Source: a virus | IMG/VR virus record: IMGVR_UViG_3300046012_000180 | Span: 1-23,624 of that record | DNA: 23,624 nucleotides | Strand: one strand, 5' to 3' | Shown here: one piece after another, positions 719-23,624 of the stretch | Layout: each line of letters opens with the position of its first letter | How positions within the stretch are numbered: the first letter of the stretch is position 1 | The notes under the pieces: model-generated | Databases searched by the model: none | Told to the model about the DNA's origin: nothing | Seen by the model: the letters and a program-made list of their open reading frames with translations, nothing else | Program-made: the position numbers and the translations under genes

Positions 719-731
719 GGATGGTACACCT

Positions 732-2932: not shown

Positions 2933-2936
2933 ACCC

Positions 2937-3640: not shown

Positions 3641-3809
3641 ATGCAACTAACAAAGAAAATAAAACCGCTGCGGGCGTAGCAATAGCAATGGTCATGCACA
3701 AGGCGTACCAAGGCCAAACGTCATATTTATCTGAAAGATGATTCCATAGTCCTATCCAAAATACCATTGCGCCAATTATTCCCACAATACTCAAAGACAT
3801 TACAATCAT
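3630..3809 (-). CDS. 59-aa two-helix membrane protein (holin candidate)
   Basis: A short gene starting with the ATG at 3809, whose ATGA overlaps the groEL stop codon, and ending with TAA at 3630, inside the next gene. The product starts MIVMSLSIVGIIGAMVFWIG. It has two hydrophobic segments, residues about 2-21 and 34-56, joined by a short polar turn (NHLSDKYDVWPW). GGGAG is placed seven bases before the ATG, within the groEL end. Two short helices and fewer than 60 residues match the build of small holins, but other tiny phage membrane proteins look the same and no lysin is adjacent (the M15 peptidase is about 15 kb upstream in the late block). The stretch is visibly richer in A and T than groEL. 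Gene likely, holin role a guess. Confidence 0.68.
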   Translation of the reverse strand: MIVMSLSIVGIIGAMVFWIGLWNHLSDKYDVWPWYALCMTIAIATPAAVLFSLLVAYGS

Positions 3810-8169: not shown

Positions 8170-8853
8170 CTAAGAGTCTGAATCTAGGAGGGAGTAGTCA
8201 CGTTGGTAACTTTGGAGGTAGGCTAGGGCTTTCTCTAGCCAAGTGCCCAATGTAGGAATCATCTGCCCTTGTTCTAGGTAGGTTTCTACTCTGCCTAGTT
8301 CTTGATTACAGTAAGCACACAAAAGACCTCGTACACATTTGCCACACGCTTTATTCTTGGAAGGACAGCAATGATGATCGTGGTCAATGCAAAGCCTTCC
8401 TTCTTTTTTCTTAGCAGTAGGGGAATATTCCATCGGGCAGAACGCGCAATGTCCATCCTGCTCCTCTAATTTTCTTCGATACCAATCACGGTCTACGCCG
8501 TACCGTCGTGACTGCCCTGCTTCATTCCAGCCTTCATTGCAGATGAGTTGCTTGCGGCTACCAAACAGGGCTTCCTTCTCAAACTTCTTGTGCCACGAAC
8601 ACCAACGATTGCCTGCCCCACGTTCAGCCTGAACCATTTCGTCCGTATAGCCATACTTTTTCAGCTTCCCAGCCCGAAGGTGAGCCGAGTCCAGATGCGC
8701 CTGTAGTTTGTCAGAGATCGGCATCGGAATGCGGCCCTCAATATATCCCTGAGCCGTGTAATTGGACAGTTCCTCCGGCATTACTCGGTGGTTGTCTTGT
8801 CCATTGTTGACCCAAATGCGAAGAGAGAAATGATCTGTTCTAGGATTATTCAT
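8170..8853 (-). CDS. Endonuclease VII-type HNH nuclease, probable free-standing homing endonuclease
   Basis: 227 residues from the ATG at 8853. Residues about 12-41 hold a Trp-Val-Asn-Asn-Gly ... Gly-Tyr-x2-Gly-Arg segment like the DNA-binding repeats of phage homing nucleases. The C-terminal half is recombination endonuclease VII: zinc ligands in HCAFC and in LLCAYCN, with the catalytic DHDH cluster and final Asn between and after them. An extra Cys-rich insert (CCPSKNKACGKC) lies in the core. The frame can be extended to 8901, but that start would lie inside the promoter at 8872-8901, so 8853 is preferred; no ribosome site is visible. The gene lies just after the capsid terminator, has its own promoter and is AT-richer than its neighbours, all signs of a mobile gene. 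A junction-resolving role as in T4 is the alternative. Confidence 0.88.
   Translation of the reverse strand: MNNPRTDHFSLRIWVNNGQDNHRVMPEELSNYTAQGYIEGRIPMPISDKLQAHLDSAHLRAGKLKKYGYTDEMVQAERGAGNRWCSWHKKFEKEALFGSRKQLICNEGWNEAGQSRRYGVDRDWYRRKLEEQDGHCAFCPMEYSPTAKKKEGRLCIDHDHHCCPSKNKACGKCVRGLLCAYCNQELGRVETYLEQGQMIPTLGTWLEKALAYLQSYQRDYSLLDSDS
8171..8184 (-). promoter_or_regulatory. Late junction motif, copy 5
   Basis: Minus strand reads AGATTCAGACTCTTAGAAGG. It matches 18 of the first 21 bases of the copy between portal and scaffold (12595-12608). Here the motif also encodes the last four residues (DSDS) and the stop codon of the endonuclease gene, so the coding end was fitted onto the element. Confidence 0.55.
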
Positions 8854-8871
8854 GTAATGAACATACGTGAA

Positions 8872-8901
8872 ATTATAAACCTTGTCAAGAAAAATTATCA
8901 A
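8872..8901 (-). promoter_or_regulatory. Host-type promoter of the endonuclease VII-type gene
   Basis: Minus strand: -35 TTGATA (8896-8901, five of six), 18-base spacer, perfect -10 TATAAT (8872-8877). The expected transcript start is about 12 bases before the ATG at 8853, leaving little room for a ribosome site, and none is visible. Confidence 0.7.
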
Positions 8902-8987: not shown

Positions 8988-10358
8988 TTAGATAGTTGGC
9001 TGGGTTGCGCCCGTGATATAAATGCCCGATTTTGGGGCATTGTCTATCAAGTTCCAACAGCAAACATAGCTGAACATATGTGAAGCTAAATAGCTGTTAG
9101 CACCCGTCGGACTGGACGGAATATCCGGCACTGGCGCTACCACACTCCCACCACCGAAGTCATACAGCTCCAGCGGTTCGAGTTCACCGATGTACCAGTT
9201 GTCGAGAACGAGGCCGTCGATCCGGCCCGGCAGCGCGTTCCACGAGATGTGAAGTGGGCGTCCGCCGAAGGTATCCTGAAACAGCTTGTGGGCTAGGTCA
9301 GGTGTGCTGTTGTCGCCTTTGTAAGCCTGCGAGTTAGGCACCTGAACGTTGTAGTAGATATTCGCCATCGAATAGCCTTGGTCGGGGCCAGTGTGCCAGA
9401 CCATGCTGTTGATTGCGACCGAGTCCGGCCCCATTGCGCGACCGAGCAGGGTGAGTGCGCGGGGAGCGAGGCCAGGGGTGACCGGGGCGTTGAGGGCGAT
9501 GGTGGGGGTAGACAGACGACCTGGGAAGGACGCACGGTTCAATCCACCAATCGTTCCGGTGTTGGAGTTAACCTGCCAAGCGCGGATGCCCTGGATGGAG
9601 GCCGAGGCTGCGCCGGACGCGGTGTTGCCGTTGTAGATGAAGAGGTAGTCACCTACTGCGGTTGCGCCACCCGTGGAGGGGAGGGCAGAGGCAGAGTAGA
9701 TGGTTTGGGAGACGGGATCAACGTAGCTGATGGTGAACGACCCGCGTGGTGAGCTGGAAGTCTCGCTAGGGTAGACGGTGACATTCTGCTGGTCGGTAAA
9801 GGCCGCAGCAATGTTCATGCCTACGATGGACGAGAAGCCCGGCCCGGCGGAGCCTGTGCCAGAGTTAACAGTGGCCGTCGAGGGGATTTGGTCAAGCATA
9901 CCGGAACCATCAGCGTTAACTAACGCCTCAAGTCCCTGCATGGCCTGATCCAGGGAATTCTTCATCTCCTGGGCTTTAACCTCGAACAGACCCTTCTGTT
10001 TCCCATCGGTGGACTGCTGCGCCAACCAGCTAATTTCGCATACGTTGTATACGAATACTGGGGACACGGCAAACGACGCCCACTGGGAACCAGTGCCACG
10101 GTAGAGGGAGTCAGCGTTGCCCGTACCTTGGGCTAGCGCGGCTCCGGCCTGCACGCGGAACGGGAGGCGGAAGGAAGGACGAGTTGTCCCACCCGCAGCC
10201 GTTACGTTACTGATGGTCTGGGTGTGGGCGGACTTCTTGAGTAGGGAGTAGGTAGTGGTGCCGTGATAAACGAGGTCGGGAATTTTGGAAGCAAACTGCT
10301 CGATTTCAATACTCTCCGCTGCGGCTTCGAGTAGCGGATTGGGGGATGCGATTGCCAT
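8988..10358 (-). CDS. Major capsid protein (HK97-type fold expected)
   Basis: 456 residues. Assignment rests on place (terminase, portal, scaffold, then this), size, its own structured leader and strong terminator, and composition: N-terminal helix (NPLLEAAAESIEIEQFASKI), a long beta-rich body, and a helix around residues 120-145 (LFEVKAQEMKNSLDQAMQG) that resembles the spine helix region of HK97-type shells. A Gly/Ser/Thr-rich stretch around 155-270 may be an inserted surface domain. It forms the icosahedral shell around the scaffold. ATG at 10358 with AAGGA eight bases ahead; that site is paired in the predicted leader fold (10363-10452). It is flanked by two endonuclease genes. It is a natural candidate client of the GroEL encoded downstream. 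Confidence 0.85.
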   Translation of the reverse strand: MAIASPNPLLEAAAESIEIEQFASKIPDLVYHGTTTYSLLKKSAHTQTISNVTAAGGTTRPSFRLPFRVQAGAALAQGTGNADSLYRGTGSQWASFAVSPVFVYNVCEISWLAQQSTDGKQKGLFEVKAQEMKNSLDQAMQGLEALVNADGSGMLDQIPSTATVNSGTGSAGPGFSSIVGMNIAAAFTDQQNVTVYPSETSSSPRGSFTISYVDPVSQTIYSASALPSTGGATAVGDYLFIYNGNTASGAASASIQGIRAWQVNSNTGTIGGLNRASFPGRLSTPTIALNAPVTPGLAPRALTLLGRAMGPDSVAINSMVWHTGPDQGYSMANIYYNVQVPNSQAYKGDNSTPDLAHKLFQDTFGGRPLHISWNALPGRIDGLVLDNWYIGELEPLELYDFGGGSVVAPVPDIPSSPTGANSYLASHMFSYVCCWNLIDNAPKSGIYITGATQPTI

Positions 10359-10524: not shown

Positions 10525-10545
10525 AAGAATTGAGTGTGGTATATA
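10517..10545 (+). promoter_or_regulatory. Host-type promoter of the HNH-AP2 endonuclease
   Basis: TTGATA (10517-10522), 17-base spacer, TATATA (10540-10545). The expected transcript start falls at about 10552, three bases before the ATG at 10555, so the mRNA would be leaderless. An alternative -10, TATATT at 10542-10547, gives the same conclusion. Confidence 0.65.
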
Positions 10546-10554
10546 TTAGGAATT

Positions 10555-11223
10555 ATGATTGGTCAACGATTTGGAAGGCTTTTAGTCAAGTACGTCTGCG
10601 ATAAAAAACGCAAGAGTTGGGTCTGTAGGTGTGATTGTGGGCGTTACGTCAACACGTCTGAAAAACGACTCAGAATAGGCATACGCACAGCTTGTAATAC
10701 CTGCCAACCGTTAAGGAAGTTTTGGCATGGGCCGAATAAAATTGAACGTCAGACTCGTCTCGGGAAGTGTTTTGTTTCCGCGAAAAAACATTGCACGTAT
10801 GTCAAATCTAGGAATTATCCAAACTATGGAGGAAGAGGGATTCAGTTCAAATTTCAGAGTTTTAAGGAATGGGGACAGGAACTAGGCCCATGTCCAGATG
10901 GGTATTTTTTGGATAGGATTAATCCAGACGGTCATTACGAGAAAGGGAATGTACGTTGGGTTCCTCGATCGGTTAGTTGCCATAACCGAAGGAAGTATCG
11001 AAAAGGGCCGAATTCGGATAACCAACATTCACAGTTTCGCGGGGTTTGGCGAGCTAACGCGTCGGCCAAAACTTGGTCAGCTTTGTTGCAGAAAGACGGG
11101 GTACGGCACTATTTAGGCACTTTCTCTTCGGAAGAAGAGGCGGGTCGAGCCTATGATAAAAAGGCTATGGAATTATTCGGCCAATACGCGGCAGTAAATT
11201 TTCCACTTTCTATTTGTACTTAG
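10555..11223 (+). CDS. Zinc ribbon-HNH-AP2 homing endonuclease, opposite to the late genes
   Basis: 222 residues from ATG 10555 (MIGQRFGRLLV); a GTG 21 bases upstream is less likely because it would fall in the promoter. The N-terminal zinc ribbon is VCRCDCG with CNTC about 20 residues later. The central HNH-like part has NYGGRG, then LDRINPDGHYEKGNVRWV with a following CHNRRK. The C-terminal AP2 domain begins SQFRGVWRANASAKTWSA and continues with YLGTFSSEEEAGRAYDKKA. This set of domains is well known in phage homing endonucleases that nick neighbouring genes and spread by repair. It sits between scaffold and capsid genes and its last 14 bases overlap the scaffold 3' end on the other strand. 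It is visibly richer in A and T than its neighbours, fitting later arrival. Confidence 0.9.
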   Translation: MIGQRFGRLLVKYVCDKKRKSWVCRCDCGRYVNTSEKRLRIGIRTACNTCQPLRKFWHGPNKIERQTRLGKCFVSAKKHCTYVKSRNYPNYGGRGIQFKFQSFKEWGQELGPCPDGYFLDRINPDGHYEKGNVRWVPRSVSCHNRRKYRKGPNSDNQHSQFRGVWRANASAKTWSALLQKDGVRHYLGTFSSEEEAGRAYDKKAMELFGQYAAVNFPLSICT

Positions 11224-12614: not shown

Positions 12615-15290
12615 TTATTTAGCTGGGGGCTTCGACTTACCTTCCTCACCGGGCATCGGAGGCTTCGGTTCCGGTTTAGGCGGTTCCGTCGCATGTTCGA
12701 CAACTTTAGGTATCACCTTCTTCGCCACATCCGTATTCAACTTTTCCTGGTTATGCTGGTCGAAGTCGGCGGGGTTAGCGGGGATGCCACCAGCGGTGAC
12801 TACTTCTGCGGCTTCGGTCGCGGGGAGGTCTTTCACGTTAGCGGAGAAGGAGACCTTGGGGCCAGCGGGAGGCGGGGCGTTCTCGGCCTCCAATCGTTTT
12901 TGTACAGTCGTATGCTCGGTGCGATGGAGGAGTGCGTTCCTAAACGCTTCCTTCTGCTCCGGCGTACCGTTAGCAAACTTCCTACCATTAGGCCCGTTGG
13001 CCCAGTCGAATATCACCTCCGCCTCGACCTCGTGATTCTCGGAGTCGTCTTGGCGTACGGGGACGGTTGATATCTCATCCGGCATCTGGGACATCTGTTG
13101 CTGGAGTTGCTGAACCATCGGCCCGGCTTGTTGTAGCTGTTGGGTCTCCTCGAGCGTAGCAATCCCCGCCTGCGCCTTCATCGCGTGTTGCTGCATCCCA
13201 GCCTGGGCCTGCTGCAACGCCTGCATTGCCATCATTTTCTGCGGATTGGGCATGGGGCCGGAGCGAAGGAGGACTTCTAACTCACCTTCTTGCTTGTCCA
13301 CCGAGTCCGCACCGGTAATCTTAAACTCCGGAATGTGAATAGCCGACTTAACTTCCTTCAGATTCTTAGGCGAGAGAATGAGAGATGAGAACTCGGTAGA
13401 CGGGGCTTGCATGGCGGAGTCGATCAGCGCCATCACCCTCGTTTCCTTCTGTGACCAGCTCTCAGGGAATTCGGAGTTGGCTTCTGGATAACACAGCACA
13501 TTCCCCTTCAACTTATTCAACTTGACCGACACCCTCCCCTTACCCGGAATCACATCGTTGATGTCTTTGTTAGCGCAACGGGCGATGAGTGAAACAGCTT
13601 GGCGTGCGGCGGTAGCGAACATACCCTGGATAGCATTCCACGGACAGCCCATGCGTTGGAGGGCTTGGTCGCGTTGGGTAGCGACACCTTCTGATCCAAC
13701 CTGCCCACTAATCTGGGCACCGAAGAGGGATGGGAGGGCACCGCTAATCTGCTCGGAGAGATTAGTGATTAGCCACTGTACAAATTGGAATAACTGTGGG
13801 TTGGGCGTCGGCGTCGGCTCAACGAATATCAACTGGTCAACTGACCGACCGGGCTGAGACTGGAATCCTGCTATTGTCCCCGGTATATTCGTCTGACTCT
13901 TCAACGCCTCGATATTAAACGCATCCGTGTCCATCCATTTCTTAGGCACGGTACGTTTGAAGTAGTCGAGCGCGAGAGAGACTAGTTCGTTAATGTAGTC
14001 TTGGATGGGGAGTAGTGAATCCCCCATCGCTCGGCGGTTTTGGCCGGAGCCGGGGAAAGGGTGTCCAACTTCTAAGTGATCCTCAATACATTCGTTGCGA
14101 GCGAAACAAAACTCCGTTGCGGCTTTGACTAGGCATACTCCGTCTGGAAACTTACCCAACAACTCCTCCCGAACCTCATCCTTCACCTTCTCTGAATAAA
14201 ACGACGATCGTCGAATGTAACCATACTTAATTACTACGTGAGAGTTGATGCTGTCGCCAGTGACGTATTGTCCAGGTATCGCCTGTCGCACGTTCTCGCG
14301 CCCGACTCGTCGTAACTCCGTCTCTCCACTCCCGTCTCCACCCCCGTGTATTTTCTCTTTCATCCACGGGAACTGGGCGCGGGCGAGTGCATTATCCGTA
14401 TCTACATAAATCGAAATCTGCCCCATCTGGGATATGTTATCTACGTTGATCGGGACTTTGTGTTCCAACTTACCAAGTGCCCGAGTCCTTACTCGACCAC
14501 GCGGCTTCTTACCCTGCAACGGAGACTGGTTCGTAATCCCGTACATCTGATCGCCGGTTTGGTCGATAGGCTGCACATCCGGCATCATCGCGTCTTCGAT
14601 AGAGGTGGGTTCGTCCTCTTCCTCGTAACCGTACTCGTCACCGTTTAGCTCGTAGAATGTCCAGAGTAGAACGCGGTCGTCAGTCCAGAAGTATCCAGCG
14701 ATGTCCCTCACTAACGAATGTAAGTTATTATTCTTAGCCCATATTCCTTCTAGATCATCCGCCACTTCCTGCATGTCGGTGTCGGGTGCCCAGTCGGGGT
14801 TAGCGGGAAAGAATTGTACACCAGGAACTTTGATCGACAGCGCAGCAGTAATGATCTCCCTTTTCTCTCCATAGACATTTGTGGCGTACAGATTCGCCTG
14901 CATCTTCTGGTTCCACGCACTATATCCTGTACCCGCACCCGGCATCGACCAGCCACCGTTACGTTCTCGGAGGAGGAATTGATAACCGCGATCATAATGT
15001 CGGGCTTTCCACGTTTGCTCGATAGAGATACGGTCAGGCGCAACGTCCGATTTCTCGAACAGCGAGTCGAGTTCCATCAACGCAGACTTAGCGGCTTCGG
15101 AAAGAGGGGAGAGGTCACGGAGGCCGTCGTCTTCATATTCATCGGGAATCCATATCTCACCCTCGGACATGTAGTGAGGTTCTGGGACGAATATGAACGC
15201 ACAATGCTGCCCAATTTCAGACGCATCAAACCCACCCTGTTCGTCGGTCACCTGCACATCACGAGAACCGGTCTGATCTAGGTCATTCAT
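12615..15290 (-). CDS. Portal protein
   Basis: 891 residues, in the size range of portals of short-tailed phages such as P22 (about 725) but longer. The first 60 residues are polar and acidic. The body contains a stem/clip region with SLVRDIAGYFWTDDRVLLWT, NRRAMGDSLLPIQDYINEL and a helix LFQFVQWLITNLSEQISGAL, followed by SGQVGSEGVATQRDQALQRM, a segment I associate with the long portal helix region. Residues about 690-750 form a Gln-rich coiled coil (MMAMQALQQAQAGMQQHAMK), like the barrel of P22-type portals. The tail is Pro/Lys-rich and disordered. It forms the ring at one vertex through which DNA enters. It starts directly after the stop of the 51-aa gene (TAG-ATG), so translation is coupled. 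Assignment by order, size and helical pattern. Confidence 0.88.
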   Translation of the reverse strand: MNDLDQTGSRDVQVTDEQGGFDASEIGQHCAFIFVPEPHYMSEGEIWIPDEYEDDGLRDLSPLSEAAKSALMELDSLFEKSDVAPDRISIEQTWKARHYDRGYQFLLRERNGGWSMPGAGTGYSAWNQKMQANLYATNVYGEKREIITAALSIKVPGVQFFPANPDWAPDTDMQEVADDLEGIWAKNNNLHSLVRDIAGYFWTDDRVLLWTFYELNGDEYGYEEEDEPTSIEDAMMPDVQPIDQTGDQMYGITNQSPLQGKKPRGRVRTRALGKLEHKVPINVDNISQMGQISIYVDTDNALARAQFPWMKEKIHGGGDGSGETELRRVGRENVRQAIPGQYVTGDSINSHVVIKYGYIRRSSFYSEKVKDEVREELLGKFPDGVCLVKAATEFCFARNECIEDHLEVGHPFPGSGQNRRAMGDSLLPIQDYINELVSLALDYFKRTVPKKWMDTDAFNIEALKSQTNIPGTIAGFQSQPGRSVDQLIFVEPTPTPNPQLFQFVQWLITNLSEQISGALPSLFGAQISGQVGSEGVATQRDQALQRMGCPWNAIQGMFATAARQAVSLIARCANKDINDVIPGKGRVSVKLNKLKGNVLCYPEANSEFPESWSQKETRVMALIDSAMQAPSTEFSSLILSPKNLKEVKSAIHIPEFKITGADSVDKQEGELEVLLRSGPMPNPQKMMAMQALQQAQAGMQQHAMKAQAGIATLEETQQLQQAGPMVQQLQQQMSQMPDEISTVPVRQDDSENHEVEAEVIFDWANGPNGRKFANGTPEQKEAFRNALLHRTEHTTVQKRLEAENAPPPAGPKVSFSANVKDLPATEAAEVVTAGGIPANPADFDQHNQEKLNTDVAKKVIPKVVEHATEPPKPEPKPPMPGEEGKSKPPAK

Positions 15291-15868: not shown

Positions 15869-16223
15869 CGTTAGTCTCCTCTGGGAGTTCCTGTTTGCGA
15901 TAGTGTTCGGCCTGTATCGCTTGCCACGTAGACGCAGGAACTTCTGACACTGAGTTGGAATCAGATCGGGGCGGAAGAGTGGAGCGACCACGCTGCGCCA
16001 ACCACCAGAAGTAGCTCGGGTCTAACTCGAATTCATCGAATTTAGCTTGGAGACGGAGGAGTTCTTGGCGGAGCGCGGCGATAGTCTGATCTCGCTCCAG
16101 TAACCTCGCTTCGTACATTGTCTGCTGATGAAACTTCTCCGTCTCAAGATGCTCGGTGAGACGGGAGCCGAATAAGTCCCGCACAAACTGTCTAATTTTC
16201 TGAGCTAAAGTTTTGTCGTCCAA
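15828..16223 (-). CDS. Coiled-coil phage protein downstream of large terminase
   Basis: 131 residues starting with TTG at 16223, supported by GAGG seven bases ahead; the start lies inside the terminase 3' end (19-bp overlap). Residues about 1-70 are nearly all helical with heptad-like Leu/Ile spacing (LLERDQTIAALRQELLRLQAK), followed by an aromatic turn SYFWWLAQRG and a polar tail. This helical-hairpin build with a WW turn is seen in small accessory proteins of the packaging region, but I do not recognise a family. The 3' part contains, in coding sequence, an 11-base stretch identical to the late motif left half (15952-15962), about 85 bases upstream of the next start. Confidence 0.68.
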   Translation of the reverse strand: MDDKTLAQKIRQFVRDLFGSRLTEHLETEKFHQQTMYEARLLERDQTIAALRQELLRLQAKFDEFELDPSYFWWLAQRGRSTLPPRSDSNSVSEVPASTWQAIQAEHYRKQELPEETNDGLSNAGRGEELR

Positions 16224-17875
16224 TGGGGCACCTCAATTTGGCGAAATTCATCCCTTACATGTTGCGCCTGATATAGTTTCTTTTGGAGAAAAAAGTGTCG
16301 GGCGAATCTGTCTTCAATCCCCTCCGCCTCCGCCAGCGCCCTCCTCTCCGCTGGCTCGCCGCGTTCCTTCCAGAGGCCGTAGAGTCCGTAGCGGAACGCA
16401 TCATACCTATCATCCGCTGCTGAATCCGTCTTCACCACATCGTCCAGACGTTTCGGATCGCGGACTAGCGTGGGGATACCTTGAATGATACCCTGACACG
16501 ATGACAGTACGACTAGCCGTCCTAACTTCAACTCGTTATACATGTGACCGGCTGACCCGATACGATCCTGCGTAGCGCGGCTCACCGGTGGCAGTCCCCG
16601 CTCGCGTAGTAACTTGGAGTAGTCGTCGGCGGGACTATGCTGCTCCATCACACGGTTAAACTTCTCGTGAGAGAAGAATATGGCTTGTATCTTACACCGC
16701 TGACCACTAATCTCTTTATGCTGAGGGTGGGACTCTGGTAACCGAGGGTAGTAGGCGTTCGCGTTGATTAGGTCAGCAAACTCCACACTCGACAACCCAG
16801 TCTTCTCCGGCGCGATTTCCTTGAAGCAGACTGTCTTCATTCGGTAGTCACTATTCTTCTCCCCATCCTCCGTCGTTGCGCCATGTCGCACCAGTGCTTT
16901 GGTGAATAAGTAGAACGCGTTGTGGTGACCAACGCCCCAATCCTGCCCTCCCACCACCGGCTGCCACGGCTGCCATATCACCGCCTCGGGGTCTTCGCGG
17001 AGGTTAACCACGTGATACTCCGGCGTCCAGCACTCGAAGAACTGTCCTTCTACATCACCGATGTACCCCTCCAACAACTTCTTCCTCAGACTCGGTGACA
17101 ACCTCATCAACCGCGTCACATACGCTGGGTCGCGTAGTAAATACGCTTTGTTATCCAGAACCGTCGAATGATTGGAGAAGTAGTCCTTCGGATGATAAAC
17201 ACACACCCACTCCCCAGCCACCTCCGCCAGCCACCTCCCGTCCTTCGCCCGCCTCATCCCCTCCATCGGCTCCCACGGGCGCTTATCAATGAAGATAGTC
17301 TTATAAAACTGCCACCACGCACCGATGGGGTTGGTGCAGCCGACGATGGCTGGGAGTGGGAGGTTACCATGCTCGTCCGGCTGACAGCCGACGTTTACAA
17401 TGTTACTGGTGATTAAACGTTGCCAGACGGTGGGGGAAAACTGGGCACACTCGTCAACGAGTATGTACGGATAACCTGTACCTAAATACTTCTCAATATC
17501 CCGCTCGGCTCCAGTCGAACACCCACCAAACACAATCCTACTCCCGTTTACAAATGTCGCAACCTTACTTCCCTTATTGAAGTCGAACAACTCCTTAGGC
17601 ACGATGGCGTGGAGATCGTTAATCACACCCTCGTCCAACTCCTTCACCGTGCGCCGGAGGGCAAGAATGGAGCAGCCTGGGTAGCGTAGACAGTATTCTT
17701 GGATACCGTACGCGAGCTTCCCAAGCGTCTTCCCCGACCGCCGTCCTCCCAACTCCAACGTCTGCTGCGCCCGGAGCTGAAGATACGGCACACCTCCCCT
17801 GTCCATCCACTCAAACGCTCGGGTTTGGCTAGGCTGGTAATCGAATTTGAATTTGGATTCGGGGGTGCGGCTCAT
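16205..17875 (-). CDS. terL: Terminase large subunit (DNA packaging ATPase-nuclease)
   Basis: 556 residues, a usual length. N-terminal ATPase: Walker A GGRRSGKT (residues 43-50), Walker B YILVDEC with Asp141 and Glu142, and a coupling-motif-like CTNP near 180. C-terminal RNase H-like nuclease: first acidic residue in GGQDWGVG (Asp312) and a final acidic pair in DDRYDAFRYG near residue 510. It pumps genome DNA into the procapsid through the portal and cuts it. Its ATG overlaps the stop of the 17872-18141 gene (ATGA), with no ribosome site of its own, so it is translationally coupled. Its 3' end overlaps the next gene. All essential motifs look intact. Confidence 0.95.
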   Translation of the reverse strand: MSRTPESKFKFDYQPSQTRAFEWMDRGGVPYLQLRAQQTLELGGRRSGKTLGKLAYGIQEYCLRYPGCSILALRRTVKELDEGVINDLHAIVPKELFDFNKGSKVATFVNGSRIVFGGCSTGAERDIEKYLGTGYPYILVDECAQFSPTVWQRLITSNIVNVGCQPDEHGNLPLPAIVGCTNPIGAWWQFYKTIFIDKRPWEPMEGMRRAKDGRWLAEVAGEWVCVYHPKDYFSNHSTVLDNKAYLLRDPAYVTRLMRLSPSLRKKLLEGYIGDVEGQFFECWTPEYHVVNLREDPEAVIWQPWQPVVGGQDWGVGHHNAFYLFTKALVRHGATTEDGEKNSDYRMKTVCFKEIAPEKTGLSSVEFADLINANAYYPRLPESHPQHKEISGQRCKIQAIFFSHEKFNRVMEQHSPADDYSKLLRERGLPPVSRATQDRIGSAGHMYNELKLGRLVVLSSCQGIIQGIPTLVRDPKRLDDVVKTDSAADDRYDAFRYGLYGLWKERGEPAERRALAEAEGIEDRFARHFFLQKKLYQAQHVRDEFRQIEVPHWTTKL

Positions 17876-18997: not shown

Positions 18998-19246
18998 TTA
19001 CTTGTCACTCACCCTCCCCACACGATACACTCCACAGTTAGGATCATAGGTTGCAAAAATGTGCCGAATCTCACTGTGCGCTTTATCTGGCCGTCCGTCC
19101 ACCATCGGCACCCACAACTCCACCTTACTCAAATCCACTTTCAAACACTCACTCCCGGTCACGACTAACCATCCCCTCTGCTCCCCCGCCCACACTGACC
19201 CTAACGCGACCAATACTACTCCAACTACTCTCCCCACCCTACCCAT
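18998..19246 (-). CDS. Small exported protein, first gene of the late block
   Basis: 82 residues. MGRVGRVVGVVLVALGSVWA is a basic then hydrophobic leader with a likely cut after VWA; the remaining 60 residues hold two Cys (GSECLKVDL and DPNCGVYRV) that could form a disulfide and an aromatic middle (VELWVPMVDGRPD). There is no lipobox Cys at the cut site. Size and export signal would suit an envelope or lysis accessory next to the M15 peptidase, which is inference. The ATG at 19246 has no close ribosome site (AGGAG is 19 bases away). Late motif copies lie upstream at 19277-19287 and inside the coding sequence at 19033-19045. Confidence 0.65.
   Translation of the reverse strand: MGRVGRVVGVVLVALGSVWAGEQRGWLVVTGSECLKVDLSKVELWVPMVDGRPDKAHSEIRHIFATYDPNCGVYRVGRVSDK
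19033..19045 (-). promoter_or_regulatory. Late junction motif, copy 6 (inside a gene, ahead of the M15 gene)
   Basis: Minus strand reads ATGATCCTAACTGTGGAGTG. It agrees with copy 2 at 16 of 20 positions (TGAT-C-AACTGT-G-GTG). It lies in the coding sequence of the first late gene, about 70 to 90 bases upstream of the M15 peptidase start, so it could serve peptidase and terminase genes. The coding constraint (YDPNCGVYRV) makes chance similarity less surprising here. Confidence 0.4.
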
Positions 19247-19276
19247 AATTTACGCTTGTTAAACTCCTATACTCCC

Positions 19277-19287
19277 ACGTCTATATC
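19277..19287 (-). promoter_or_regulatory. Late motif relative ahead of the first late gene
   Basis: Minus strand reads TTGATATAGACGTGGGAG. It shares GATATAGAC with the portal-scaffold copy and TTGATAT with the capsid copy, but lacks the T after AC. It stands 31 bases upstream of the 19246 start, where the first late promoter is expected. Confidence 0.35.
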
Positions 19288-19379
19288 AATCCACCACTCT
19301 ATTTATGCGCCAGACTATGAATTATCATATTTCTCCAGTTGACGTGGGTAAAGTTGGATTCGCTTGTTAAAGCTTATAA

Positions 19380-19397
19380 AATGGTAAATTTTCCATT
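19380..19397. promoter_or_regulatory. Operator-like dyad
   Basis: AATGG-T-AAATTT-T-CCATT is an 18-base dyad with a single mismatched pair. It directly follows a TATAAA box at 19375-19380. Such a dyad fits a dimeric repressor site; no partner is proven. Confidence 0.4.
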
Positions 19398-19611
19398 GGC
19401 ATCCGCGCCGGAGTCCCAGGAGTTCCTATGGAAGGGAAACGGGGGGTGGTCGGTCGGCTGGGAAAGCATTCCTTTGGGTCGGGCCGCGACGGTGGAGTCG
19501 GGTGAGAGTGGCGCTAGGTGCGGCGCAAACTCATGTGACTTTGGCGCGTGAGTGTGAGTTAACTCCGCGCAACCTACACGCAACACCGTCCTACTGTGGA
19601 CTAGGTGGGAC

Positions 19612-19632
19612 TAGTTATCCGGACGATAACTA
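19612..19632. repeat. Inverted repeat related to the one at 6819-6839
   Basis: TAGTTATC and GATAACTA flank a 5-base centre (CGGAC). The arms AGTTATC/GATAACT are shared with the dyad at 6819-6839, where the centre is CGCCG. No U-run on either side. Possibly a binding site of one phage protein at two places, or two unrelated hairpins. Confidence 0.45.
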
Positions 19633-19738
19633 TTCGACTCCTCCTGATCTCTCGCCACTCGCTTGACTGAGATAGCGTTAACACTGTACACGTTATGATT
19701 AATGGTAGGAATGAAGTGGATATATGATTAATTGGATT

Positions 19739-19756
19739 TCCACAGGCTGTGGATAA
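19739..19756 (+). promoter_or_regulatory. Consensus DnaA box with dyad in AT-rich DNA (origin candidate)
   Basis: TGTGGATAA at 19748-19756 is the exact complement of the DnaA box TTATCCACA. It forms the right half of a 15-base dyad TCCACAG-G-CTGTGGA (19739-19753). Around 95 bases on both sides are A/T-rich, with repeated ATTAATT. It lies at the switch of transcription direction. A single box is weak proof of an origin. Confidence 0.4.
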
Positions 19757-19773
19757 TTAATTGAATTATTCGC

Positions 19774-19802
19774 TTGACAAGTGTGGTCACTTGGGATAGA
19801 CT
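19774..19802 (+). promoter_or_regulatory. Main early promoter, with a dyad in its spacer
   Basis: Perfect -35 TTGACA (19774-19779), 17-base spacer, -10 TAGACT (19797-19802, four of six). Expected transcript start falls at about the A of the ATG at 19809, so the mRNA is probably leaderless. The spacer holds AAGTG-TGGT-CACTT, an inverted repeat, and TGTGGTCACTTG (19782-19793), which recurs with two changes in the promoter at 23072-23099. Repression by the ribbon-helix-helix product is a natural guess. Confidence 0.7.
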
Positions 19803-19808
19803 GGCACC

Positions 19809-19985
19809 ATGTTGAGAGCAATACAGGAATTAAAGACGGTGACTAAGACGAGTGAGAGTATGCACTTGCGGTTGCCAGTCGCATTGTATCAGGCAGTGTG
19901 TCAGATAGCTACCGCTGAAGGCCGCACGATAGCGAATACTATTAGGCGGTTGTTGACTGAGGCGATTGAACGGAGGAACGGATAA
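19809..19985 (+). CDS. Ribbon-helix-helix (Arc/CopG-type) DNA-binding protein
   Basis: 58 residues, MLRAIQELKTVTKTSESMHL at the start. The ribbon-helix-helix unit is residues about 17-56: strand SMHLRLP, helix ALYQAVCQIATAEG, turn RTI, helix ANTIRRLLTEAIER, exactly the spacing of CopG/Arc proteins, whose dimers bind paired short sites. It is the first rightward gene, its ATG coincides with the predicted transcript start, and no Shine-Dalgarno site exists. A dyad lies inside its promoter spacer, so autorepression and control of the early block are plausible. The stop TAA shares its last base with the next ATG (TAATG), and an ACGGAGG ribosome site for that gene lies in its end. Confidence 0.85.
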   Translation: MLRAIQELKTVTKTSESMHLRLPVALYQAVCQIATAEGRTIANTIRRLLTEAIERRNG

Positions 19986-20242
19986 TGGCGAATCATAACG
20001 ACAATGGGACAACGGTAATAGGTGCTCCAAACTCGTTTGCAAACTCATTGCAGACAGGTTGTGGCAAGCACACGCACATGGTCGGCACGAATGGCGGCAC
20101 GTTTCCGTGTGGCTCACGAATCAAGATGTTGGATGGTAGCTATACGGTTGAGTATTGCGCCGTGTGTGAGGATAAACGGAAACTGTTCTGGTCGCCTTTG
20201 AAGGCTGCTACGGATTCGATTGAACGGAGGGATGGGAGATGA
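19985..20242 (+). CDS. Small Cys/His-rich early protein
   Basis: 85 residues. It has TGCGKHTHM, FPCGSR and a CAVC pair (EYCAVCEDK), so four Cys and two His that could bind one zinc ion. It starts at ATG 19985, coupled to the upstream stop, with CGGAGG ahead. Its end repeats the DNA CGATTGAACGGAGG present at the end of the upstream gene, again serving as ribosome site for the next gene. Such small zinc-binding early proteins often act on host proteins; nothing specific can be said. Family not recognised. Confidence 0.78.
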   Translation: MANHNDNGTTVIGAPNSFANSLQTGCGKHTHMVGTNGGTFPCGSRIKMLDGSYTVEYCAVCEDKRKLFWSPLKAATDSIERRDGR

Positions 20243-20424
20243 CAAACCTGACTAAGAATATGATCTCATCGGTTGCGCTGAATATCGCTAATGTGCTTTG
20301 CGGGACTATGGTCAATGGCAAGCACTTAGCTGACATTGCGGATCGTGATGAGATTTGCAGCGCGATTGAGTGTGAACTGGCAGATACCGACTTCAATGAT
20401 TATGACGAAAGAGTTGGTGCCTAA
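20239..20424 (+). CDS. 61-aa early protein, unknown
   Basis: MTNLTKNMISSVALNIANVL starts a mostly helical, acidic protein ending DFNDYDERVGA. Two Cys are present without a zinc pattern. The start ATGA at 20239 overlaps the upstream stop, with GGAGG plus GGGAG ahead; the last base is shared with the next start. Tight overlap on both sides supports it as a real gene. No domain recognised. Confidence 0.75.
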   Translation: MTNLTKNMISSVALNIANVLCGTMVNGKHLADIADRDEICSAIECELADTDFNDYDERVGA

Positions 20425-20669
20425 TGATAAAGCAAACTACCTTCAGTGGCGTACCGGGCGATTCGCGTTGTGAGTGCTCCGATGCGAATTGTCCTATGGA
20501 TCACGGCGCATTGTGCGGTCAAGTTGCTACACAGATTCTATATCGGATTGATATGGATGATGTGAGCGGTACGGCGTTCTGTGACAAGTGTGCCGATGAT
20601 GCGTTCGAGTCAGGTCTGTTTACTGACAGTGTAGACGATGAGCACGGCGCAATTCCAAGGGGGAAATAA
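20424..20669 (+). CDS. Cys-rich early protein, likely zinc-binding
   Basis: 81 residues. Cys cluster CECSDANCPMDHGALCG in the first third and FCDKCADD in the last third; together six Cys and one His, enough for one or two zinc sites, as in small treble-clef or ribbon proteins. The end is acidic (FTDSVDDEHG). ATG at 20424 overlaps the upstream TAA; there is no strong ribosome site, so coupling is likely. The stop overlaps the ATG of a 37-aa membrane protein. Function unknown. Confidence 0.76.
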   Translation: MIKQTTFSGVPGDSRCECSDANCPMDHGALCGQVATQILYRIDMDDVSGTAFCDKCADDAFESGLFTDSVDDEHGAIPRGK

Positions 20670-20782
20670 TGGGTTCACGCATTGCAGCATCGTTAGTGAT
20701 AATCACAACTGGAATAGTTGTGTATGGGTTGGTTGTGTCACACGTGATCGGCGCATTAGTCACTAGACTACCGATACACTGA
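20669..20782 (+). CDS. 37-aa single-helix membrane protein
   Basis: MGSRIAASLVIITTGIVVYG leads into one hydrophobic helix, residues about 5-32, ending in RLPIH. The ATG shares a base with the upstream stop (TAATG) and AGGGGG stands six bases ahead. One membrane span and small size are all that can be seen; it could be a membrane-targeted early protein. Shorter than 60 residues but strongly supported by the ribosome site and exact junction. Confidence 0.6.
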   Translation: MGSRIAASLVIITTGIVVYGLVVSHVIGALVTRLPIH

Positions 20783-20825
20783 GCGCGGTCGAGAATGCGG
20801 TAAAATCTGAGGATGAGGTACTGTG

Positions 20826-21356
20826 ATGCACACCGTAAAAGAATGGAAGCATCCCGATAGCTATGTAGGCGCTACTTGGGAGGGTTGGTACTCTGCTGGA
20901 TTCGGACAATCGCGTGATAGTGACGCGCTAGAGGCCAGTAACTTTCAGTCGGTGTATGACGAGCTGAAACCTCTATCGAATCCAAACGGTATTACTGATG
21001 GTGGTGAAACGGAAGTTACCGACATTCGCATTGTGCGCGAAAATCATTGGGCAGTGGGTTGGGTTGAATGGATCGCTATTCATGGTAGCAATACCGCTGC
21101 GTTGGATGCTGCTCGTAAGCTCTGCGACCGCGCGAATGATTACCCTGTGTTAGATGAGGATGATTTCAGTCGCAGGGAAGACGAGCAGTGTGAGCAGACA
21201 TGGCGCGAATGTTTCAGCGCATCAGAACGGGTTGATTACTTGCGCCGTCACAGCTACACAGCTACTAGCTTTGCGGACTTGCTACAGGCTATCCGCGCTG
21301 GTTCGTGGTATCACGCGGCAAACATGCTACATAGTCCGAGTGACCTACTGTACTAA
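20826..21356 (+). CDS. Conserved phage protein of unknown function (KEWxHPDSYVG type)
   Basis: 176 residues from ATG 20826 (GAGG seven bases ahead); a GTG codon directly before it gives the same frame. It opens MHTVKEWKHPDSYVGATWEG and has ENHWAVGWVEWIAIHG in the middle, then DYPVLDEDDFS and, near the end, YLRRHSYT and a final PSDLLY. I know this family as a widely distributed phage protein of unknown role in the early or accessory region of environmental phages; this is memory, not a search. It is Trp-rich and soluble, with no zinc site. It stands after a 43-base gap following the membrane gene. Confidence 0.8.
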   Translation: MHTVKEWKHPDSYVGATWEGWYSAGFGQSRDSDALEASNFQSVYDELKPLSNPNGITDGGETEVTDIRIVRENHWAVGWVEWIAIHGSNTAALDAARKLCDRANDYPVLDEDDFSRREDEQCEQTWRECFSASERVDYLRRHSYTATSFADLLQAIRAGSWYHAANMLHSPSDLLY

Positions 21357-21367
21357 CTACCGAATCC

Positions 21368-21393
21368 CGCATCCGATTCGTCACGCGGGTGCG
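21368..21393 (+). other. Early junction hairpin, copy 1
   Basis: CGCATCC (21368-21374) pairs with GGGTGCG (21387-21393), seven bp with one G-T pair, loop 12 bases. It lies between the 21356 stop and the ribosome site of the next gene. The same two stem arms recur at the next junction (21619-21641) with a 5-base loop. No U-run follows. Confidence 0.5.
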
Positions 21394-21422
21394 CGGCTTG
21401 GGTGGTTCACAAGGGAGGAACT

Positions 21423-21608
21423 ATGGGACATCGGTATGAGTTACATCGCACTGACACGCATGAAACGGATGACCAAGGCAAATGCTATCGCTGGTGCATC
21501 TATGACTATTTCGACGTGAACGGGCACCACGGTATCTCGTTTTGGTACTTTGTCTCGAAACAGGATGCTTTACAGACGTACCCCGAAGCTAATGTAGAGT
21601 TTGCTTAG
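21423..21608 (+). CDS. 61-aa early protein, unknown
   Basis: From ATG 21423 (GGGAGG seven bases ahead; an upstream TTG/ATG at 21402 is less likely). The product begins MGHRYELHRTDTHETDDQGK and is rich in aromatic residues (RWCIYDYFDVNG, SFWYFVSKQDAL), suggesting a compact beta domain. One Cys only. It is bracketed by two hairpins with the same stem. Function unknown. Confidence 0.72.
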   Translation: MGHRYELHRTDTHETDDQGKCYRWCIYDYFDVNGHHGISFWYFVSKQDALQTYPEANVEFA

Positions 21609-21618
21609 TTTCCCGCGC

Positions 21619-21641
21619 ATCGCATCCGAGTTGGGTGCGAT
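21619..21641 (+). other. Early junction hairpin, copy 2
   Basis: ATCGCATCC pairs with GGGTGCGAT (nine bp, one G-T pair) around the 5-base loop GAGTT. The inner seven bp are the same as in copy 1. It is followed after 15 bases by AAGGAGG, the ribosome site of the 21668 gene. Confidence 0.55.
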
Positions 21642-21667
21642 ACGAGGTAAATCCTAAGGAGGATAAC

Positions 21668-22279
21668 ATGCGAATCCGAATGCTTGCACCACGAGCGGAG
21701 TTAACGCTGTCAGACGGTAGCACAGTGGAAGTACAGCGCATCGGTAAAGGTCGCTATACGACGGCTTGGCGCAACTGCTCGAATGTGTATCTGCAAACGA
21801 ATGAGAAGGATTACGGGAAGGAGATTGTTTGTAGAGCATCGCGGGAAGGTAATCCGCACATTCCAGCATGTACACAGTTAGACTCAGCTGAGTCGGTACA
21901 TAACTGGTACAAGATGCCACTGTATCAGCCGCTCACAGCGAAGTCGGGTAAAGCATGGGAGGACTTTAAGGCACTAAAGCAGATGTGGGAAGATGCGCGG
22001 AGATCGGTTAGTTATGATGCGCGACGGAGTGACGATCAGGATGTTTATGCGACTAACGCCGCGTTTGGTGAGTTGGTTGAGGATGCGACCTACTTGGATG
22101 AGCAGATGAAAGAGGCTGTGCGTATTCTGCTGGATGAGTGTACGAATTACAGCACATATACGATTGAGATTAGCAAGCGGAATTGTGCGGTGGACAATGC
22201 CGGTAACTTGATTCTGTTAGATGCCGTGTTTGACTTGGCAGAGGTACGGGCACAGTGGCGGAAGCGGACTAGGTTCTAA
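21668..22279 (+). CDS. Protein-kinase-like phage protein, probably without kinase activity
   Basis: 203 residues from ATG 21668, with AAGGAGG eight bases ahead. Near the N-terminus VEVQRIGKGRYTTAW (residues 21-34) resembles a glycine-rich loop, and near the end KRNCAVDNAGNLILLDAVFD resembles the catalytic and metal-binding strands of a kinase C-lobe (Asn, then GNLILLD). The usual ATP-lysine strand, the HRD motif and a DFG triplet are missing, so I call it a pseudokinase or a fold-related protein. The middle is helical and charged (EDFKALKQMWEDARRSV). Comparable proteins are frequent in environmental phages, from memory. It might bind nucleotides or mimic a host kinase. Flanked by hairpins on both sides. 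Confidence 0.72.
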   Translation: MRIRMLAPRAELTLSDGSTVEVQRIGKGRYTTAWRNCSNVYLQTNEKDYGKEIVCRASREGNPHIPACTQLDSAESVHNWYKMPLYQPLTAKSGKAWEDFKALKQMWEDARRSVSYDARRSDDQDVYATNAAFGELVEDATYLDEQMKEAVRILLDECTNYSTYTIEISKRNCAVDNAGNLILLDAVFDLAEVRAQWRKRTRF

Positions 22280-22288
22280 ACCTTACTC

Positions 22289-22317
22289 ACGTTCTCCGCG
22301 TGTGAGGGGGAGAACGT
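22289..22317 (+). other. Early junction hairpin, 9-bp stem
   Basis: ACGTTCTCC (22289-22297) and GGAGAACGT (22309-22317) are perfect complements across an 11-base loop. It sits 10 bases after the stop codon at 22279 and just before TATGGAGGG, the ribosome site of the next gene. No U-run follows, so it is like the two hairpins upstream in place but not in sequence. Confidence 0.55.
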
Positions 22318-22334
22318 TATGGAGGGTTTGAGAG

Positions 22335-22520
22335 ATGATCGCAATAGAGCGCAATAACAACAGTTTTGTGTTGAAGGTGCATGATAAAGGATTCGGTACT
22401 TATGCACAATCCGCAAAAGATTTAGAGTCCGCGCTGACTGGTGTTCGGCATTACTACGGACGGGAGCACGATAAGCAGGAGTGTCCTATGTGTGCAGGCG
22501 AAAGGAGCGAATCACAATGA
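22335..22520 (+). CDS. 61-aa early protein with a CPMC pair
   Basis: MIAIERNNNSFVLKVHDKGF opens a small beta-helix protein that ends with ECPMCAGERSESQ; a single Cys-x2-Cys pair could bind half a zinc ion. GGAGGG lies nine bases before the ATG. Its stop overlaps the next start (ATGA at 22517-22520). Unknown function. Confidence 0.75.
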   Translation: MIAIERNNNSFVLKVHDKGFGTYAQSAKDLESALTGVRHYYGREHDKQECPMCAGERSESQ

Positions 22521-22885
22521 GCAGCGAACACACAACAGGCGATCATTGCCCGGATTGTTTCAATGCGGGATATGACGCAAGAGACCAACGAGCGGAATCA
22601 CGCGCCGTCACAACTGAGAAGGTGAAGCATACGAGTGGGCCGTGGACGGTAGTGCATGGAGTCCCGACGCTAGTTAATTCAGGTACAGCGATGAAGAGTG
22701 TTGCGGATACAACGTGCGGAAGGAAACCTACAGTTGAGGATGAGGCAAACGCCCGTCTCATCGCAGCGAGTCCGGAGATGTTGAGCGCGTTGGAACTAAT
22801 GGTATACGAGCGAAAGATCGGCATGACCAGTGAGCGGAGTATGCAGTTGGCTGAAGCTGCCATCCGCCGCGCCAAGGGGGAATGA
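22517..22885 (+). CDS. Conserved phage protein of the HTPGPW / EANARLIAA type
   Basis: 122 residues from ATG 22517, the position coupled by ATGA to the upstream stop. The start holds HCPDCF, then KHTSGPWTVVHG and the signature EDEANARLIAASPEMLSALE, followed by a helix ending AAIRRAKGE. Small proteins with a T-x-G-P-W segment and a later E-x-E-x-N-A-R-L-I-A-A-x-P helix are very common in phages of Gram-negative hosts, from memory; their role is unknown. The CxxC at the start is an addition. Confidence 0.82.
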   Translation: MSSEHTTGDHCPDCFNAGYDARDQRAESRAVTTEKVKHTSGPWTVVHGVPTLVNSGTAMKSVADTTCGRKPTVEDEANARLIAASPEMLSALELMVYERKIGMTSERSMQLAEAAIRRAKGE

Positions 22886-23068
22886 ATGAGCAGCACAACT
22901 ACATTCGATTGGCCGCGTGAGCGGCGTTGGAATCGGCGTAGGGACGCTGGGACGCGGGCGCGGAGGGAGATTGCGACGCTGGAACTACGTGCGTTTAGGT
23001 TGGTCGCGTGGGCGGTGGTGTGTGGGGCGGTGACGGGAGTAGCATACACATGGGTGTTGATTAAGTAA
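22886..23068 (+). CDS. 60-aa protein: basic arm plus one membrane helix
   Basis: MSSTTTFDWPRERRWNRRRD begins an Arg-rich cytoplasmic arm (residues 1-38), followed by one hydrophobic helix (LVAWAVVCGAVTGVAYTWVL) ending in IK. The ATG lies directly after the upstream TGA, with AGGGGGAA ahead. It would sit in the inner membrane with a positively charged inside domain. Function unknown. Confidence 0.66.
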   Translation: MSSTTTFDWPRERRWNRRRDAGTRARREIATLELRAFRLVAWAVVCGAVTGVAYTWVLIK

Positions 23069-23071
23069 CTG

Positions 23072-23099
23072 TTGCATTATGTGACCACTTGTGTATAAG
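23072..23099 (+). promoter_or_regulatory. Second early promoter candidate carrying the same spacer element
   Basis: -35 TTGCAT (23072-23077, three of six), 16-base spacer, -10 TATAAG (23094-23099, five of six). TGTGACCACTTG (23080-23091) in the spacer matches TGTGGTCACTTG of the first early promoter at 10 of 12 bases, at nearly the same distance from the -10 box. It lies in the largest gap of this part of the rightward block. Confidence 0.45.
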
Positions 23100-23146
23100 T
23101 GTAAGCAGTTTGGGAAGGCCGTACAAGAGTTTTGAGGAGGAGTGAC

Positions 23147-23305
23147 ATGAACAAATGCGGGAATTGTGACTCGGAGTGGACGGATGAACAGTTGAATGTT
23201 GTGAAGAATCTGTTCCTACGTGTTCTACCAGGTGAGCCGATGCCGAGCGGCGAGTGTCCTGAATGTGGGGCGCTGTGTCATCCAATAGAAGAAAGTTGTG
23301 CATAG
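23147..23305 (+). CDS. 52-aa zinc ribbon protein
   Basis: MNKCGNCDSEWTDEQLNVVK, a short helix, then LPGEPMPSGECPECGALC and a final Cys. Two CxxC pairs about 33 residues apart form a classic zinc ribbon. AGGAGGAG stands five to seven bases before the ATG at 23147. I recall similar small proteins (CxxCxSEWT ... GECPECGAL) from many phages; role unknown. Too short for usual length limits but strongly supported by its ribosome site and Cys pattern. Confidence 0.8.
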   Translation: MNKCGNCDSEWTDEQLNVVKNLFLRVLPGEPMPSGECPECGALCHPIEESCA

Positions 23306-23311
23306 TCCAGG

Positions 23312-23355
23312 GCAAGCGAGTTCCAAAGCGGTCACCTAACGACGTGTTAGCTTGC
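23312..23355 (+). other. Nested hairpin after the zinc ribbon gene
   Basis: GCAAGC (23312-23317) can pair with GCTTGC (23350-23355), enclosing an inner hairpin CTAAC/GTTAG (23336-23350) with loop GACGT. It fills the 86-base gap after the stop codon at 23305. It lacks a U-run. A tRNA was considered and rejected. Confidence 0.35.
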
Positions 23356-23391
23356 GACTGAGCGTTGGGGGCCGGTGGGACGTGAGATGTG

Positions 23392-23613
23392 ATGCGGAAC
23401 GGGCGGGAAGAGTATCAGTGTATGGGATGTCATTACATCGGAGGGTTGAATGTGCATGGCCGTTGCGACCGATGCAACAGTGAGGCTGTGCTTAGCCAAG
23501 AACTACTAGTGATGACCGGGAATAGTGGGATGCGGGTGACGGCGAGTGTACAACGAGTGCGGACGGTGAGAATGCGTGGTCGCATAGCAGCGATGAAGGC
23601 GAAGGCTGGGTAG
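23392..23613 (+). CDS. 73-aa zinc ribbon protein with basic tail
   Basis: From ATG 23392 (a GTG just before it gives one more residue). MRNGREEYQCMGCHYIGGLN leads into a zinc ribbon with YQCMGC and GRCDRCNSEAV, 14 residues apart, followed by an Arg-rich tail (VRTVRMRGRIAAMKAKAG) that could contact nucleic acid. There is no good ribosome site, and the start is thus uncertain. The gene ends 11 bases before the window edge. Function unknown. Confidence 0.6.
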   Translation: MRNGREEYQCMGCHYIGGLNVHGRCDRCNSEAVLSQELLVMTGNSGMRVTASVQRVRTVRMRGRIAAMKAKAG

Positions 23614-23624
23614 TAGGGCTTCTC

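What the first reader, a model, noticed from the sequence alone, without database searches (positions are those of the whole stretch)
21368..21641. Same hairpin stem in two consecutive early junctions
CGCATCC/GGGTGCG occurs at 21368-21393 (loop 12) and 21619-21641 (loop 5), flanking a 61-aa gene, each followed by a strong ribosome site. A third junction hairpin with a perfect 9-bp stem but another sequence is at 22289-22317. Stem identity with different loops argues for selection on pairing or protein binding, such as an antitermination site, a processing signal or a gene-cassette boundary.
Basis: seen in the sequence. Interest (0 to 1): 0.55.

Follow-up and report, generated by a model that had tools for sequence, protein, structure and literature searches.

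The report
Repeated RNA hairpins between phage genes
Three neighbouring gene junctions of an uncultured phage fold into RNA hairpins between one gene's stop and the next gene's ribosome site, two of them sharing a stem; this is a fairly common kind of phage junction element, probably for cutting or protecting the messenger RNA, rather than a new system.

Summary
CGCATCC/GGGTGCG occurs at 21368-21393 and 21621-21639 (9 bp at 21619-21641) and nowhere else in the window. A repeated 7-bp stem within 300 nt arose in 1 of 400 shuffles. All three hairpins fill the slot between a stop codon and the next ribosome site. In 73 related phage loci, junctions of 50-160 nt are more structured than matched coding windows (95 of 245 against 29 of 469 with z below -2). 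The wobble pairs favour the coding-strand RNA. Junctions of one genome share an identical 7-bp stem in 19 of 215 pairs; junctions of different genomes do so in 21 of 12,458. The closest relatives keep a hairpin after the same gene but with another sequence. Five relatives carry hammerhead ribozymes in the same slot. So the hairpins are best read as RNA junction elements for transcript processing or 3'-end protection, duplicated or homogenised within a genome. A sequence-specific protein site or antitermination signal is unlikely. Unrelated viral contigs show the same tendency (35 of 117), so the finding is fairly ordinary. Taken alone, two of the three window hairpins are not thermodynamically exceptional. 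A more novel side find is a Shine-Dalgarno-pairing leader before nuclease genes in three kin contigs.

The parts
20826..21356 (+). 176-177 aa gene of unknown function upstream of hairpin 1; family of which 17 relatives were first fetched
   Evidence: only weak phrog_4313 hit
21357..21422 (+). junction 1, stop codon to start codon, folds as one long interrupted hairpin
21368..21393 (+). hairpin 1, stem CGCATCC/GGGTGCG with one U-G pair, loop 12
21423..21608 (+). 61 aa gene between hairpins 1 and 2, no family hit
21609..21667 (+). junction 2
21619..21641 (+). hairpin 2, same 7-bp core, 9 bp in all, loop 5
21668..22279 (+). 203 aa gene of unknown function (phrog_11084, 5.6e-14) after hairpin 2
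22280..22334 (+). junction 3
22289..22317 (+). hairpin 3, perfect 9-bp stem of unrelated sequence, loop 11
22335..22520 (+). 61 aa gene after hairpin 3

Best explanation
The three hairpins are RNA junction elements of a polycistronic early mRNA. Each folds in the sense transcript in the slot between one gene's stop codon and the next gene's Shine-Dalgarno sequence. The most likely job is mRNA segmentation: the hairpin marks or shields a 3' end where the polycistronic RNA is cut (by a host nuclease) or trimmed, so that neighbouring genes behave as separate messages. Shown here: the pairing, its position, the RNA-strand bias and the within-genome reuse of stems, the last three in relatives. Inferred: the cutting and protecting. 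The shared stem of hairpins 1 and 2 most likely comes from duplication or homogenisation of a short hairpin within the genome, not from recognition of that sequence by a protein.
For: Junctions with gap 50-160 near the family gene: 95 of 245 with z<-2 against 29 of 469 matched coding windows; 54 of 63 loci show the junction lower than coding. After the family gene itself, 17 of 21 loci (window included) with gap of at least 50 have z<-2. Hairpins start a median 4 nt after the stop and end a median 19.5 nt before the start codon, and 84 of 105 lack a T-tract. Wobble pairs are 151 G-T against 78 A-C on the sense strand, and 58 against 19 hairpins lean to G-T, while shuffles give 174 against 171. 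Stem reuse: 19 of 215 same-genome junction pairs against 21 of 12,458 different-genome pairs. Two both-side changes keep the 12-bp stem of one orthologous junction in six relatives. Eight type II hammerhead matches in 5 of 73 records fill the same stop-to-ribosome-site slot, three of them in consecutive junctions of L053.
Against: Window hairpins 1 and 2 are not exceptional in folding energy with their flanks. The hammerhead analogy is positional only; the window itself has no ribozyme match. No RNA end, nuclease site or expression is known. Stems of 7-9 bp with interruptions are short for a recalled RNase III site. Unrelated viral contigs show a similar tendency (35 of 117 junctions against 18 of 228 coding windows), so the signal may mix several functions, terminators included. 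The covariation comes from one sequence of six, and 23 of 500 shuffles reach it.
Confidence: 0.42

Rival explanations
1. The hairpins are transcription attenuators or terminators without a U-tract (a terminator form reported for some bacteria; recalled), tapering expression along the operon.
For: Some junction hairpins in relatives are terminator-like: 21 of 105 structured junctions hold a T-tract. L095 ends its run of four T-less hairpins with a hairpin followed by a T-rich tail.
Against: None of the three window hairpins has a T-run, the consensus scan finds no terminator at them, and no promoter-like site lies between the genes that follow.
Confidence: 0.2
2. They control translation of the next gene, by coupling it to termination of the previous gene or by hiding or presenting the Shine-Dalgarno sequence.
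For: In the window the outer pairs join the stop-codon region to the region of the next ribosome site (folds), and an alternative stem GTGGTTC/GAACTAT would enclose the site of the 61 aa gene.
Against: Over 102 structured junctions the site is as accessible as in shuffled junctions (0.474 against 0.481, p 0.61).
Confidence: 0.17
3. No function as pairing: remnants of inserted or slipped palindromes tolerated in non-coding spacers, with the shared stem a chance match or a recent copy.
For: Hairpins 1 and 2 have modest z, and general viral contigs show the same tendency.
Against: Wobble asymmetry (58 against 19) and a hairpin kept after the same gene with changed sequence argue for selection on RNA pairing in this group.
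Confidence: 0.13
4. The shared stem is a binding site for a phage or host RNA-binding protein, such as an antitermination site.
For: Identical stems in consecutive junctions of one operon.
Against: Loops differ in length and sequence, the third junction has another stem, and relatives with 73% protein identity have unrelated hairpins. In boxB-type sites (recalled) the loop is the recognised part.
Confidence: 0.08

Closest known systems
Hammerhead ribozymes of phage and prophage junctions (type II, RF02276)
   Same: Same slot between stop codon and next ribosome site, in consecutive junctions in L053; proposed in print to cut phage transcripts into gene-length mRNAs (PMC3088659, passages read).
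   Different: The window has no hammerhead core and no match.
Hairpin upstream of seg43(25) in Aeromonas phage 25, and ribosome-site-hiding hairpins of T4 homing endonucleases (PMC2988022, passages read)
   Same: For seg43(25), a stable hairpin sits immediately upstream of the ribosome site without hiding it, as here.
   Different: Those precede endonuclease genes; the window's hairpins precede small genes without a family of known function.
SAS/ESAS elements of cluster K mycobacteriophages (PMC11373665 and PMC12699233, passages read)
   Same: An imperfect inverted repeat before several genes of the early arm, beside the translation start.
   Different: The SAS consensus is absent from the window; ESAS holds a promoter, and none is seen at the window hairpins.
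RNase III processing sites between T7 early genes (recalled)
   Same: Interrupted hairpins in the junctions of an early operon.
   Different: Host, cutting and RNA ends unknown here; stems are shorter.
PeSL cassettes of T4-type phages (recalled; no paper found)
   Same: Stem-loops reused in junctions between small genes.
   Different: No early promoter seen with the window hairpins.

Membership tests
Hammerhead ribozyme (RF02276) | CUGANGA...GAAA core with three stems | tested here: not met
   No Rfam match up to E 1 in 19000-23624, no RF02276 match in the window, no pattern match
Intrinsic transcription terminator | G+C-rich stem followed at once by a T-run | tested here: not met
   No T-run after any of the three stems; consensus scan finds none there
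boxB/nut-type antitermination site | repeated hairpin with a conserved small loop (recalled feature) | tested here: not met
   loops of 12 and 5 nt with different sequence; the accompanying boxA was not searched
SAS/ESAS of cluster K mycobacteriophages | 13-bp SAS GGGATAGGAGCCC at the start codon | tested here: not met
   0 matches with up to 2 mismatches
RNase III processing site | cleavage by RNase III in the stem | not testable with these tools
   needs RNA-end mapping; only the hairpin shape was seen
Phage junction RNA hairpin (descriptive kind) | sense-strand RNA pairing in the stop-to-ribosome-site slot, kept in relatives | tested here: met
   position and strand bias in 73 loci; window z -1.46, -2.84, -2.62

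The most novel reading that the evidence does not exclude
Each of these phages maintains its own private set of junction hairpins, copied or converted from junction to junction within a genome and exchanged for hammerhead ribozymes in some lineages. The operon would then be cut into single-gene messages by interchangeable RNA elements whose sequence is free but whose slot is fixed.
Probability: 0.17. Interest if true: 0.6.

Novelty: new member of a known kind. Interest (0 to 1): 0.33.

Why it matters
If junction hairpins and hammerheads are interchangeable, small-gene phage operons would be segmented by RNA, which would explain how many tiny early genes on one transcript get separate levels. 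It also gives a concrete test set of loci and slots. For this window alone the finding is modest.

Tried and rejected
Led nowhere: search of the early block in 50,697 phage records by distant blastn (no match). Relatives of the 203 aa gene (none). The 61 aa gene gave one doubtful 11-residue match, not used. Prophage hosts by genome contigs (none), so the host is unknown. Rfam on 19000-23624 (none). Paper searches with no hit. One search gave two off-topic papers. One search (hammerhead, bacteriophage, intergenic, mRNA processing) listed 8 papers, none opened. One search gave only PMC3014915, of which I read passages.

Considered and rejected: a DNA-level palindrome for a repressor (wobble bias to the sense RNA); general ribosome-site hiding; a window copy of the ribosome-site-pairing leader of L103 (none found). 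An H-type pseudoknot in hairpin 1 (CGAATC 21362-21367 with GATTCG 21375-21380) was seen by eye; no homologous junction exists to test it.

Limits of the statistics: genes were called by a simple caller of my own, checked only by eye on three sequences. Ten near-identical loci (L011, L066, L067, L070, L073, L075, L076, L082, L085, L093) and second fetches of the same contigs were left out of the 73. Of the 73, the downstream junction of the family gene was not called in range in 24, was under 35 nt in 25 and at least 35 nt in 24. Different-genome pairs include some related genomes. In one search, L083's groups are a low-complexity repeat. The control contigs came from a DNA-pattern hit (51 of 58 used, those of 3000 bases or more); no test of group against control was run. 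Only one orthologous group, the one I noticed, was given to the count of structure pairs.

Full report
What was checked. The window is a 23,624-base record of an uncultured virus. Leftward genes encode virion and packaging proteins: terminase large subunit 16205-17875, portal 12615-15290. A rightward block of small genes starts near 19809, behind a promoter-like site at 19774-19802. The reported stem CGCATCC/GGGTGCG is present at 21368-21393 and 21621-21639 and nowhere else. The third hairpin, 22289-22317, is also as described. Asking for any repeated 7-bp stem on the + strand rather than this one, 31 of 400 shuffles had one anywhere and 1 of 400 had one within 300 nt.

Anatomy. In each of the three junctions (66, 59 and 55 nt) the fold covers most of the space between the stop codon and the next ribosome site. 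The junctions alone have z of -1.46, -2.84 and -2.62. With about 20-30 nt of flank, z is -1.00, -1.21 and -3.21. Taken alone, the first two are not convincing. No T-run follows any of them, and no promoter-like site lies between the genes.

Relatives. The 177 aa gene upstream of hairpin 1 has relatives in viral contigs (17, 80). In the two nearest (L003 and L004, 73% identity by alignment) the sequence after the stop codon again folds strongly (75-nt windows, z -4.06 and -2.55), with no evident sequence in common with the window. I called genes in 73 non-redundant loci, the window included, and found 1,141 same-strand junctions with gaps from -30 to 160. Near the family gene, 95 of 245 junctions of 50-160 nt have z below -2, against 29 of 469 length-matched coding windows; 54 of 63 loci go the same way (Wilcoxon p 7.6e-9). 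Directly after the family gene, 17 of the 21 with a gap of at least 50 have z below -2; the window is one of the four that do not.

RNA, not DNA. In symmetric inverted-repeat searches, junction hairpins with at least 9 Watson-Crick pairs (111 of 291 junctions) hold 151 G-T against 78 A-C oppositions on the coding strand. 58 hairpins lean to G-T and 19 to A-C (p 1e-5), while shuffles give 174 against 171. Without T-tract junctions the bias stays (44 against 17, p 7e-4). The pairing is therefore used in the sense RNA. Structured junctions (105) mostly lack a T-tract (84). In those, the hairpin starts a median 4 nt after the stop codon and ends a median 19.5 nt before the next start codon.

Reuse of stems within a genome. 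Same-genome junction pairs share an identical 7-bp stem in 19 of 215 cases, different-genome pairs in 21 of 12,458. The window is one of ten genomes in the first group. The clearest case is L095, with the same hairpin in four consecutive junctions; its copies vary by U-A to U-G changes in the stem, and two of its genes are paralogs. L022, L027 and L039 also repeat hairpins, some with changed outer stems. In one orthologous junction of six relatives, a 12-bp stem is paired in 72 of 72 cells, with two both-side changes, both in one sequence; 23 of 500 shuffles do as well. The window genes around hairpins 1 and 2 are not paralogs, so there the hairpin alone was copied or converted, or arose twice.

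Ribozymes in the same slot. Rfam's type II hammerhead matches 5 of the 73 records at E of 3e-4 or better (8 copies, 2 above the curated score), none in the window and none in 14 control genomes. Three more records have weak matches at E 0.006-0.01, which I do not count. All eight lie between genes, starting within about 10 nt of a stop codon; in L053 three consecutive junctions hold one. [quoted passage not shown] This is the main reason to prefer processing or 3'-end protection for the plain hairpins too. It is an argument from position, not a demonstration.

Other readings. Shine-Dalgarno accessibility in 102 structured junctions equals that of shuffled junctions (0.474 against 0.481), which speaks against general ribosome-site control. 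A protein or antitermination site is unlikely, since loops, the third stem and the relatives' hairpins all differ. Attenuation without a U-tract cannot be excluded. In 51 viral contigs picked without regard to this family, 35 of 117 junctions have z below -2 against 18 of 228 coding windows, and 2 of 67 same-genome pairs share a stem against 7 of 2,416. The tendency is thus not special to this group, and I rate the finding as a new member of a known kind.

A side find of more novelty. Following terminase relatives of the window led to L103 and L101, and a pattern from them to L106. There, junctions carry a T-less hairpin after the stop codon, then TAGAG plus a second hairpin whose 6-7 nt loop is perfectly complementary to the bases overlapping the next Shine-Dalgarno sequence. 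Eight copies exist, five of them in L103. All 8 loops match their own partner, and none of the 56 swapped pairs does. Six of the genes behind it match HNH, endonuclease VII or NUMOD3 nuclease families. The seventh reads like endonuclease VII and the eighth is cut by the locus end; both of these are read by eye. No Rfam family matched it up to E 5 in L101, L103 and L100. T4 homing endonucleases are known to be held back by ribosome-site-hiding hairpins (PMC2988022, passages). This would be a loop-pairing variant shared by unrelated nuclease genes. A paper search for pseudoknot, homing endonuclease, Shine-Dalgarno and phage listed four papers and none by title on such an element. The window has no copy.

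Noticed in passing
L103 8470-8529, 12371-12432, 13692-13752, 17013-17072, 22236-22293; L101 3791-3850; L106 292-351 and 3418-3478: A repeated leader (hairpin, then TAGAG hairpin whose loop pairs perfectly with the next Shine-Dalgarno region, GACCT-like linker) stands before HNH, endonuclease VII and GIY-YIG-like nuclease genes; 8 of 8 own pairs complementary, 0 of 56 swapped pairs. No Rfam match.
   Followed up: partly
L007 minus strand 1724-1766 and L004 minus strand 5277-5329 (coordinates on the reverse complement); L100 1842-1881: Similar loop-to-ribosome-site complementarity before replication-type ATPase or primase-like genes (by eye) and before a GIY-YIG gene. Shuffled loci gave 5 hits against 11 real ones, so single cases may be chance.
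   Followed up: partly
L053 6829-6890, 7183-7245, 7718-7773; L050 5901-5977, 6948-7031; L028 1505-1566; L045 4598-4664; L051 3263-3326: Type II hammerhead ribozyme matches in junctions of relatives, three in consecutive junctions of L053.
   Followed up: yes
window 727-744 and 2932-2949, minus strand: An 18-base sequence, GATTCCAACTGTARGGTG, repeated in two junctions of the leftward genes; 0.04 matches expected.
   Followed up: no
window 3806-5398 and 5367-5738, minus strand: Phage-encoded GroEL (Cpn60) and GroES-like (Cpn10) genes side by side.
   Followed up: partly
window 8170-8901 (-) and 10534-11223 (+): Two likely free-standing endonuclease genes beside the 456 aa gene 8988-10358: an endonuclease VII match, and an AP2-domain protein below Pfam's cut-off.
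   Followed up: partly
window 19774-19985: Promoter-like TTGACA-17-TAGACT overlaps the palindrome CAAGTGTGGTCACTTG, directly before a gene with a weak ribbon-helix-helix match; possible self-repressed switch of the rightward block.
   Followed up: no
window 21362-21367 with 21375-21380: CGAATC could pair with GATTCG in the loop of hairpin 1 and make an H-type pseudoknot; seen by eye, untestable for lack of homologous junctions.
   Followed up: no
L095 3858-4882: Four consecutive junctions with nearly the same hairpin followed by CTAKCATATGA; after the last gene comes a hairpin with a T-rich tail.
   Followed up: partly
L103 9920-12337: The terminase gene reads 805 aa against 556 aa in the window, so it may hold an insertion or intein.
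   Followed up: no
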